Shown here in pieces: positions 2,818-4,287 of a DNA stretch of 6,369 nucleotides. The notes under the pieces were generated by a model that worked only from the letters and a program-made list of their open reading frames with translations, ran no database searches and was not told where the DNA came from. The stretch is from Clostridiaceae bacterium. GTDB lineage: Bacteria > Bacillota_A > Clostridia > Acetivibrionales > Acetivibrionaceae. The position numbers and the translations under genes are program-made. Location of the stretch: assembly GCA_012513545.1 (NCBI GenBank), contig JAAZCB010000581.1, positions 1 through 6,369 on the forward strand. Reading direction: 5' to 3'. Position 1 is the first letter of the stretch, and each line of letters begins with the position of its first letter.

Positions 2818-4011
2818 TCACACCCCCAAGGAAACAACAAAATTATATATTGGATCGTAGATTATATTTGGGAACAATCCTATTGCAAGACATGTTAGTA
2901 TCAATATCACAATAATTGCCTTGAACATCGTTCCACGAACTTCTGTATTGACTTCTACTTTTGGCCCTGGTTTCATGAATATCATGAAGAATGCTTTTAT
3001 AATCGCAACAAATGTTGCTACGCTCAATAATATTACTAGCACTCCGAGTTCAGGTACTCCCGCTTGAGCTGCGGCCTGAATTAATCTCCATTCACTTTGA
3101 TAAGAGTTAAATGGTGGAACTCCAGATATAGCCAGAGTTGCTAATAACATTACAAATCCTACTAAAGGAACAACCTGTAATCCATCTCCAAGTTCTTCCA
3201 GTTTTGTTGTTTTGAATTTATCGTAAACAAAGCTTGCAATGAAGAATAGTATTGCCATGCTTAATACATCATTAATTGCATGGAAAATACCTGCTGCAAT
3301 AGCAAAGGAAGTACCTATCCCAAATCCTACTGCTACAAGCCCCGCTTGGGATACTGCTACAAATGATAGAAGCTTTCTAAGTTCTACCTGTTGTAAAGCC
3401 ATTACTGAACCTAAGACAACGGTGAATATTGCAAATCCCAGCATTACAGATTTTAGAAGAGCAAAGCCAGAGAACACTCTGAATAAAATTATAGCCATTG
3501 CAACAAGAACAAACTTAGACTGAACTTGCAATAATGCAGATATTTCTGGTTTTGCATTTTCATACATATTGCACTTAATTATATGAAATGGGAAAAGACC
3601 CGATTCATAGAGCCATCCCAGTGTTAACAACGACACAGCAGATAATGCAATTGGATTTAACTGTCCACCGGCTTTAATAGCATTTGATAGATCTGTTATA
3701 TTCAAAAGTCCGTATACTCCTAAGAGGAGAGCAATTCCTAATAGAATTGAAGCCCCTGAAATTGTTCCAAAAATCATATATTTAAATCCTGCTTTGAAGG
3801 ATTTAGTATCTTGAACTGCTATTACAAGTGCTACTTGCGCAACTACTAAGATTTCAGTGAAAACAAAGAAGTTGAATATATCGTCAGCTAACATTATTGC
3901 ACTAGTTGAAGCCAGACTAATGAAAATCATGGCTATATATACCCCTGAAATCATCTTTTTATTTAGTACTGTCAGAACAGTAAAACCTGTAATTATGGTA
4001 AGGACTACCAT
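2818..4011 (-). CDS. ehbF: MrpD/NuoN-like antiporter subunit, C-terminal 397 residues of an interrupted gene (EhbF-like)
   Basis: This is the bulk of the large proton- or sodium-channel subunit, related to MrpD, MbhH and NuoM/N, with about eleven hydrophobic segments. Family landmarks in order: FFVFTEIL at 48-55, with Glu53 as the helix-5 glutamate; His143 and SALLQVQSK at 159-166, with Lys166 as the likely helix-7 lysine; LRKLLSFVAVSQ at 211-222; IFHAINDVLSMAIL at 242-255; GVPPFNSYQSEW at 297-308; and Lys339 in a late helix. The usual lysine of the FH..NHA..K motif is not present: Ser/Met occupies that place. The N-terminus of the family is missing here and is found in the same frame at 4033-4287, beyond a TAA. 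The ATG used has no well-placed ribosome binding site (GGG lies 18-20 bases upstream), unlike the other genes of the operon. Whether this half is made by reinitiation is unknown. Confidence 0.8.
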   Translation of the reverse strand: MVVLTIITGFTVLTVLNKKMISGVYIAMIFISLASTSAIMLADDIFNFFVFTEILVVAQVALVIAVQDTKSFKAGFKYMIFGTISGASILLGIALLLGVYGLLNITDLSNAIKAGGQLNPIALSAVSLLTLGWLYESGLFPFHIIKCNMYENAKPEISALLQVQSKFVLVAMAIILFRVFSGFALLKSVMLGFAIFTVVLGSVMALQQVELRKLLSFVAVSQAGLVAVGFGIGTSFAIAAGIFHAINDVLSMAILFFIASFVYDKFKTTKLEELGDGLQVVPLVGFVMLLATLAISGVPPFNSYQSEWRLIQAAAQAGVPELGVLVILLSVATFVAIIKAFFMIFMKPGPKVEVNTEVRGTMFKAIIVILILTCLAIGLFPNIIYDPIYNFVVSLGV

Positions 4012-4032
4012 TAGTATTTTCTGAACTGACCC

Positions 4033-4035
4033 TTA
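4033..4035 (-). other. In-frame TAA interrupting the MrpD/EhbF-like gene
   Basis: Codon 85 of a frame that runs from 4287 to 2818 is TAA. The codons after it (GSVQKIL, then the ATG at 4011) stay in the same frame, so removing this one codon gives a single 489-residue protein, the usual size for MrpD/EhbF-type subunits. One base change (for example from TTA, Leu) explains the break. It may be a true nonsense mutation, a strain variant or an assembly or sequencing error. Confidence 0.85.
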
Positions 4036-4287
4036 AGAGTATACTATTCCCATGTATACATCAGGTATCAACAATTTTGATATTTCAGGAAAACTGCCTG
4101 TTCGAAGATGACCGCTGAACAAATGTACCCCATACAGAGTTACAACTGGTATGAAGACAAAGACAATCAAAGATACAATAGAGATAAACTTTACAGACTT
4201 ATCTTTTTGATGAAGAAAGTTTACCAAAATCGCCATTATCAATGGAAGTACAACCATCAGTGGAATTAAAGTACTGTTGTTTAACAT
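4033..4287 (-). CDS. ehbF: N-terminal fragment of the MrpD/NuoN-like subunit (EhbF-like, interrupted)
   Basis: An 84-residue open frame with two hydrophobic segments, near residues 7-25 and 33-55, then a polar stretch ending in YMGIVYS before TAA. This fits the N-terminal two helices of MrpD/MbhH-type antiporter subunits, and the rest of that protein follows in the same frame. By itself it lacks all ion-path residues and is unlikely to work alone. The ATG abuts the TAA of the MrpC-like gene (TAAATG), with a GAGGGGGAT ribosome binding site upstream, so translation begins normally. It could be described as a small separate membrane protein, but the exact frame match to the downstream part argues for one broken gene. 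Confidence 0.75.
   Translation of the reverse strand: MLNNSTLIPLMVVLPLIMAILVNFLHQKDKSVKFISIVSLIVFVFIPVVTLYGVHLFSGHLRTGSFPEISKLLIPDVYMGIVYS

What the first reader, a model, noticed from the sequence alone, without database searches (positions are those of the whole stretch)
2818..4287. Core ion-channel gene split by a single in-frame TAA
The 84- and 397-residue frames are in the same reading frame, 24 bases apart from stop codon to ATG, and together make a 489-residue MrpD/EhbF-type protein. The upstream half has a good ribosome binding site; the downstream ATG does not, although the other operon genes do. The break falls in a weakly conserved stretch before the conserved helix-5 Glu. Options: recent nonsense mutation with a crippled complex, a tolerated split with reinitiation, readthrough, or a sequence error. 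TAA is not a known recoded codon in archaea (Pyl uses TAG, Sec uses TGA).
Basis: partly seen in the sequence, partly recalled or inferred. Interest (0 to 1): 0.75.

Follow-up and report, generated by a model that had tools for sequence, protein, structure and literature searches.

The report
Isolated stop codon in archaeal hydrogenase gene
A single-base stop codon interrupts an otherwise intact hydrogenase ion-channel gene in one stretch of DNA from an uncultured methane-making archaeon; no relative found here shares it, so it is most likely a sequence error or a very young mutation and not a working two-part gene.

Summary
Minus-strand gene 2818-4287 is ehbF, the ion-channel subunit of hydrogenase Ehb, from an unnamed Candidatus Methanofastidiosum species. 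Codon 85 (4033-4035) is TAA. Seven of 7 relatives read in DNA have a tyrosine codon there, one base away. Residue 85 is aromatic in 28 of 30 homologues, so not weakly conserved. The downstream ATG is an ordinary internal methionine without a strong ribosome binding site, and TAA ends 7 of 11 complete genes here. Constraint after the stop is within the relatives' range. Relatives hold one antiporter-type gene (7 of 7) and no MtrE (0 of 7), so a fixed null should be costly. Best reading: one wrong or minority base (0.55); next, a very recent nonsense mutation (0.32). The contig is not visibly error-rich and no reads were available, so these cannot be separated. A working split or readthrough has no positive support, although the break falls just before helix 3 of the model, where a two-piece protein is conceivable.

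The parts
2818..4287 (-). ehbF, 489 codons of which codon 85 is an in-frame stop
   Evidence: best NCBIfam model is EhbF, E=1.2e-141, 472.8 bits, under its 578 cut-off, as are 5 of 5 intact Methanofastidiosa relatives scored, 459.8-475.8 bits; Pfam PF00361 E=1.8e-34; sources name relatives EhbF
4033..4035 (-). in-frame TAA, codon 85; a tyrosine codon in 7 of 7 relatives read in DNA
4033..4287 (-). upstream frame, 84 aa: helices 1 and 2 and most of the strand before helix 3
2818..4011 (-). downstream frame, 397 aa, from an internal Met (codon 93) six residues inside helix 3; no strong ribosome binding site
5539..5856 (-). MnhE-like subunit (EhbA by order), intact
5206..5538 (-). MrpF-like subunit (EhbB by order), intact
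4922..5209 (-). MrpG-like subunit (EhbC by order), intact
4693..4935 (-). MbhD-like subunit (EhbD by order), intact
4288..4692 (-). MrpC/NuoK-like subunit (EhbE by order), intact; ends in TAA directly before the ehbF ATG
2503..2814 (-). 103-aa protein (EhbG by order; no family match), TTG start, intact
1705..2502 (-). MnhB/MbhE-like protein, probably the fused EhbHI reported for Methanofastidiosales (PMC9635834, passage), intact
1434..1712 (-). EhbJ, 92 aa, intact
   Evidence: a source names relative P0142 EhbJ
1043..1432 (-). 4Fe-4S ferredoxin subunit, intact
63..1043 (-). polyferredoxin subunit, intact

Best explanation
The gene is an ordinary one-piece ehbF. The TAA is a single-base departure that does not represent the living population: a base-call or assembly-consensus error, or a minority allele caught in a metagenome consensus. 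In the cells the full 489-residue EhbF is made and serves as the antiporter-like ion channel of Ehb. Shown: the stop is there, differs from every relative found, and no decay or visible adaptation accompanies it. Inferred: that the base is wrong or a minority allele (no reads were available), and that the window comes from a metagenome.
For: The alignment with three relatives has no gaps here, and one base separates the stop from the tyrosine codons of 7 of 7 relatives read in DNA. The 23 protein clusters at 75-90% identity are full length, 488-489 aa or 479 aa. After the stop, pairwise dN/dS of the window is 0.064-0.078 against 0.050-0.076 among three relatives, and its branch dN is 0.030 against 0.031, 0.029 and 0.037. 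In 7 of 7 relative genomes one PF00361 gene is found, ehbF, and 0 of 7 have MtrE, so a fixed null should be selected against. The other 10 complete genes of the window match their relatives over full length without stops. Single-genome lesions occur in this set: EhbJ of L039 breaks off with stops after 47 residues.
Against: The window shows no general excess of odd bases: 15 private departures at conserved residues over the operon, the stop included, against 20, 18 and 18 in three relatives, so nothing independent points to poor sequence quality. No indels or frameshifts are seen. The window's branch dN/dS (0.030/0.358, about 0.08) is at the upper end of the relatives (about 0.05, 0.06 and 0.09), which leaves room for a short unconstrained period. 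A genuine recent mutation fits the comparative data equally well. Relatives of the species occur in other public contigs (EhbJ 98% identical), but their ehbF DNA could not be read. Completeness of the relative genomes is not told, so the absences are soft.
Confidence: 0.55

Rival explanations
1. A genuine, very recent nonsense mutation carried by the sequenced lineage: the 84-aa piece is made, the rest is not, and Ehb is lost or crippled in that strain.
For: A single-base change is a common route to a nonsense codon. The lack of decay is what a young mutation would show. The rest of the contig looks clean. In M. maripaludis deletion of ehb genes gave an acetate auxotroph, so it is survivable there (passage in PMC3087415). 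A membrane pyrophosphatase, another possible ion pump, is found in 6 of 7 relatives.
Against: One antiporter-type gene (7 of 7) and no MtrE (0 of 7) are found in relatives, so the loss should be costly in a methyl-reducing methanogen. By my rough estimate an unconstrained period could fill only a few percent of the window's branch.
Confidence: 0.32
2. A tolerated split: ribosomes stop at TAA and restart at the ATG 21 bases on, giving a helix 1-2 piece and a piece from helix 3 onward that assemble into a working EhbF.
For: The break falls at the end of the strand 82-85 just before helix 87-108 in the predicted model of an intact relative (mean pLDDT 90.2; block 81-90 at 90, but 61-80 only 59-64), a plausible place for a two-piece membrane protein. 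The ATG is close and in frame. The 397-aa part shows constraint within the relatives' range.
Against: No ribosome binding site of the operon's usual strength precedes the ATG (-2.7 kcal/mol over 20 bases, -3.8 over 24; real starts -6.5 to -12.3). The codon is ATG in 5 of 5 relatives tabulated, which lack the stop, and restarting there removes the first six residues of helix 3. No relative found has the split, and a search for proteins of 46-147 aa sharing words with the upstream piece found none.
Confidence: 0.09
3. The TAA is read through, by chance or by a suppressor tRNA, giving full-length EhbF.
For: It would explain constraint after the stop.
Against: TAA is the normal end of 7 of the 11 complete genes in the window. 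No unusual RNA structure lies around the stop (z-score 0.00). No match listed from relatives has a stop. No tRNA gene lies in the window and no whole genome is held in which to look for a suppressor.
Confidence: 0.04

Closest known systems
EhbF, antiporter-like subunit of energy-converting hydrogenase B (NCBIfam NF004920)
   Same: Match over residues 6-488; same gene order as other Methanofastidiosum ehb operons; score (472.8 bits) like that of 5 of 5 intact Methanofastidiosa relatives scored (459.8-475.8)
   Different: Interrupted by TAA at codon 85; the Methanofastidiosa proteins scored fall under the family's 578 cut-off, while Methanococcus maripaludis EhbF (P0042) reaches 791.3
PDB 6cfw chain H, 'Monovalent cation/H+ antiporter subunit D' (MbhH of Pyrococcus furiosus MBH: name and organism recalled)
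   Same: Whole-length homologue, E=1.6e-133 by profile
   Different: Uninterrupted; the residue aligned with position 85 is Val

Membership tests
EhbF of Ehb [NiFe] hydrogenase | Proton_antipo_M domain and best match to EhbF | tested here: met
   PF00361 119.7 bits, cut-off 21.5; EhbF is the best NCBIfam model
EhbF of Ehb [NiFe] hydrogenase | Score over the NCBIfam NF004920 curated cut-off | tested here: not met
   472.8 bits against 578; 5 of 5 intact Methanofastidiosa relatives scored are under it too, the Methanococcus protein is over it; so this is a divergent class, whose members sources name EhbF in part
EhbF of Ehb [NiFe] hydrogenase | Lies in an ehb operon with hydrogenase subunits | tested here: met
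   Ten other complete operon genes in the order of relatives; in L001 ORFs that look like hydrogenase small, large and membrane subunits follow (named by eye); the window ends before them
EhbF of Ehb [NiFe] hydrogenase | Conserved helix-5 Glu of antiporter-type subunits | tested here: met
   E145 invariant in 31 of 31 rows; lies in helix 137-156, the fifth long helix of the model
Naturally split two-gene subunit | Split conserved in relatives, with a ribosome binding site before the second part | tested here: not met
Stop-codon readthrough or recoding | TAA not a normal terminator, or a stimulatory structure, or a conserved stop | tested here: not met
Pseudogene | Relaxed constraint or further lesions | tested here: inconclusive
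   No further lesion and constraint within the relatives' range; a very young pseudogene cannot be excluded

The most novel reading that the evidence does not exclude
A newly split ion-channel subunit: the stop lies just before helix 3, and two separately translated pieces (helices 1-2, and helix 3 onward by reinitiation without a strong ribosome binding site) assemble into a working EhbF in an archaeon whose relatives show no spare antiporter-type gene.
Probability: 0.09. Interest if true: 0.5.

Novelty: already known. Interest (0 to 1): 0.12.

Why it matters
As an error or a fresh nonsense mutation it matters little beyond annotation: the window should be read as an ordinary ehb operon with one doubtful base. 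If reads proved the stop real and fixed, it would show that this methyl-reducing methanogen can lose, or run in two pieces, what looks like its only antiporter-type ion pump, which would be worth a test.

Tried and rejected
A compensated frameshift was rejected: the DNA alignment around the stop has no gaps. A conserved split was rejected: no relative found shares it. A structural readthrough signal: the fold of 111 bases around the stop is no more stable than shuffles. An error-rich contig: private departures at conserved residues are not in excess. Relatives in viral contigs: none. The first paper search listed unrelated papers, mostly on EHBP1. The 397-aa window protein is not among the representatives listed (120 of 186 listed, only the 7996 best candidates scored), so that collection gives no independent copy of the split; near-identical proteins may be hidden inside clusters of 90% identity. 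Genomes without a match: G006, G007, G010, G021.

Rows left out: one search aligned the window with 27 of the 120 proteins listed and P0002-P0004 translated from loci (P0002 is also listed); counts at residue 85 use the 30 rows other than the window, several of them near-duplicates (25 after removal). In one search the private-change comparison used 5 close and 8 more distant rows and gave 3 for the window (stop included) and 1, 4, 3 and 0 for the others. Codon comparisons of the whole gene used L001, L037 and L038; L003 covers 241 codons and L002 452. dS values are near saturation (0.8-2.2), so ratios are rough. The script printed the codons of L039 and L040 out of register; one search shows TAT at the aligned place in both.

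After the one-time check of the report I ran. They confirmed the codons of L039 and L040 and the Val of 6cfw_H, showed that intact relatives also fall under the NCBIfam cut-off, and showed the broken EhbJ of L039. The odds of the four readings were not changed; the probability of the novel case went from 0.08 to 0.09 to agree with its rival entry, and the pseudogene test went from not met to inconclusive.

Full report
What is there. The window is a minus-strand ehb operon, with the start of a leucyl-tRNA-synthetase-like gene (named from recall; no family search was run on it) on the other strand at 6020. Eleven complete genes lie between 63 and 5856 if ehbF is counted as one. The first bases hold the start of the next operon gene: its 21 readable residues equal the start of the 161-aa ORF that follows the polyferredoxin in L001. 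The nearest named genomes are Candidatus Methanofastidiosum methylothiophilum MAGs, L001 (90% protein, 81.9% DNA identity in this gene) and L003 (91% and 82.8% over 241 codons). No genome is held for the window itself.

The stop. The frame 2818-4287 has 489 codons of which codon 85 is TAA, and then its own TGA. The DNA alignment with L001, L002 and L003 is gapless there. The codon is TAC in L001 and L003 and TAT in L002, L037, L038, L039 and L040, all tyrosine. The residue is Y in 22, F in 6, I in 1 and V in 1 of 30 homologues, or 17, 6, 1 and 1 of 25 after near-duplicates are dropped. The 23 protein clusters of 75-90% identity are 488-489 or 479 aa long.

Is it a working split? The codon for Met93 is ATG in 6 of 6 genomes tabulated, the window included, and Met in 12 of 30 homologues, so it was not made for a restart. 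Its upstream 20 bases pair with the anti-SD at only -2.7 kcal/mol (24 bases: -3.8; five relatives without the stop: -1.7 to -7.6). The 11 starts of the operon genes lie between -6.5 and -12.3, and 65 internal ATGs average -2.4, the strongest being -7.0. On a model of the intact relative P0002 (mean pLDDT 90.2) the stop is at the end of a strand (82-85) just before helix 87-108, and Met93 is six residues inside that helix; the loop 61-80 is of low confidence (59-64). That this side lies outside the cytoplasm is recalled from related subunits and was not tested. So two pieces could in principle assemble, but nothing seen in the sequence is tuned for it, and the search with the upstream piece found no short relative.

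Is it readthrough? TAA ends seven of the eleven complete genes here: the MnhE-, MbhD- and MrpC-like genes, the 103-aa gene, EhbJ, the ferredoxin and the polyferredoxin. The RNA around the stop has no unusual structure (z = 0.00, 95 of 200 shuffles fold at least as well).

Is it a decaying gene? For codons 86-489, pairwise dN/dS of the window with L001, L037 and L038 is 0.064, 0.074 and 0.078; among those three it is 0.050, 0.065 and 0.076. Private changes there are 31 synonymous and 16 replacing in the window, against 52/16, 34/14 and 36/20 in L001, L037 and L038. The window's branch dN (0.030) is like theirs (0.031, 0.029, 0.037). Its branch dS is the lowest (0.358 against 0.641, 0.465 and 0.428), so its branch ratio, about 0.08, is at the upper end of theirs, about 0.05, 0.06 and 0.09 (my division). 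My rough estimate is that unconstrained evolution could fill no more than a few percent of the branch. The stop is therefore very young, or not real.

Error or mutation? Across the operon the window has 15 private departures at residues conserved in its relatives, the stop included; L001, L037 and L038 have 20, 18 and 18. So the contig is not visibly error-rich, which weakens but does not remove the error reading, since a single wrong base is enough. Lesions of one genome alone do occur in this set: EhbJ of L039 breaks off with stops after 47 residues. A fixed null looks costly: one PF00361 gene, ehbF, is found in 7 of 7 relatives (in G002 and G003 the gene is in pieces), and MtrE in 0 of 7 (the two methanogen controls ring). 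A membrane pyrophosphatase is found in 6 of 7. The completeness of these genomes is not told. Passages seen in PMC9635834 say that Methanofastidiosaceae lost Mtr and became methyl-dependent hydrogenotrophic methanogens; [quoted passage not shown] In Methanococcus maripaludis, which has Eha as well (its Mtr is recalled), ehb deletion gives an acetate auxotroph (passage in PMC3087415). Passages of PMC7382037 and PMC7485788 were also seen and are not used for the argument.

Weighing. I put 0.55 on a wrong or minority base, 0.32 on a genuine very young nonsense mutation, 0.09 on a tolerated split and 0.04 on readthrough. The first two cannot be separated without reads. Close relatives of this species are present in other contigs (EhbJ P0124, 98% identical, 6 contigs), which offers a direct check that I could not make. 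The window's EhbJ differs from P0124 at residues 32 and 40. At 32, L001, L037 and L038 have the residue of P0124; at 40 it is shared by L038, L039 and L040; none of the five relatives printed has the window's residue at either place. That fits strain drift or further doubtful bases and does not decide between them.

Noticed in passing
window 1434-1712: The window's EhbJ differs at residues 32 and 40 of 92 from P0124, a public cluster representative on 6 contigs, and none of five relatives read has the window's residue at either place: strain variation or further doubtful bases.
   Followed up: partly
L039:5175-5453: EhbJ of this relative breaks off with stop codons after 47 residues while the genes on both sides are intact: another single-genome lesion in an ehb operon, probably a frameshift or assembly fault.
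   Followed up: partly
G001-G005, G008, G009: In Methanofastidiosum relatives one antiporter-type gene (ehbF, 7 of 7), no MtrE (0 of 7) and mostly a membrane pyrophosphatase (6 of 7) were found: a short list of ion pumps (completeness not told).
   Followed up: partly
window 1-63 and 6020-6369: Both ends of the window cut genes (the next ehb operon gene, and a leucyl-tRNA-synthetase-like gene named from recall), as in a short metagenome contig.
   Followed up: no
window 2503-2814 and 1705-2502: Two operon genes appear to use TTG and GTG starts with strong ribosome binding sites (-12.3 and -11.4 kcal/mol).
   Followed up: no
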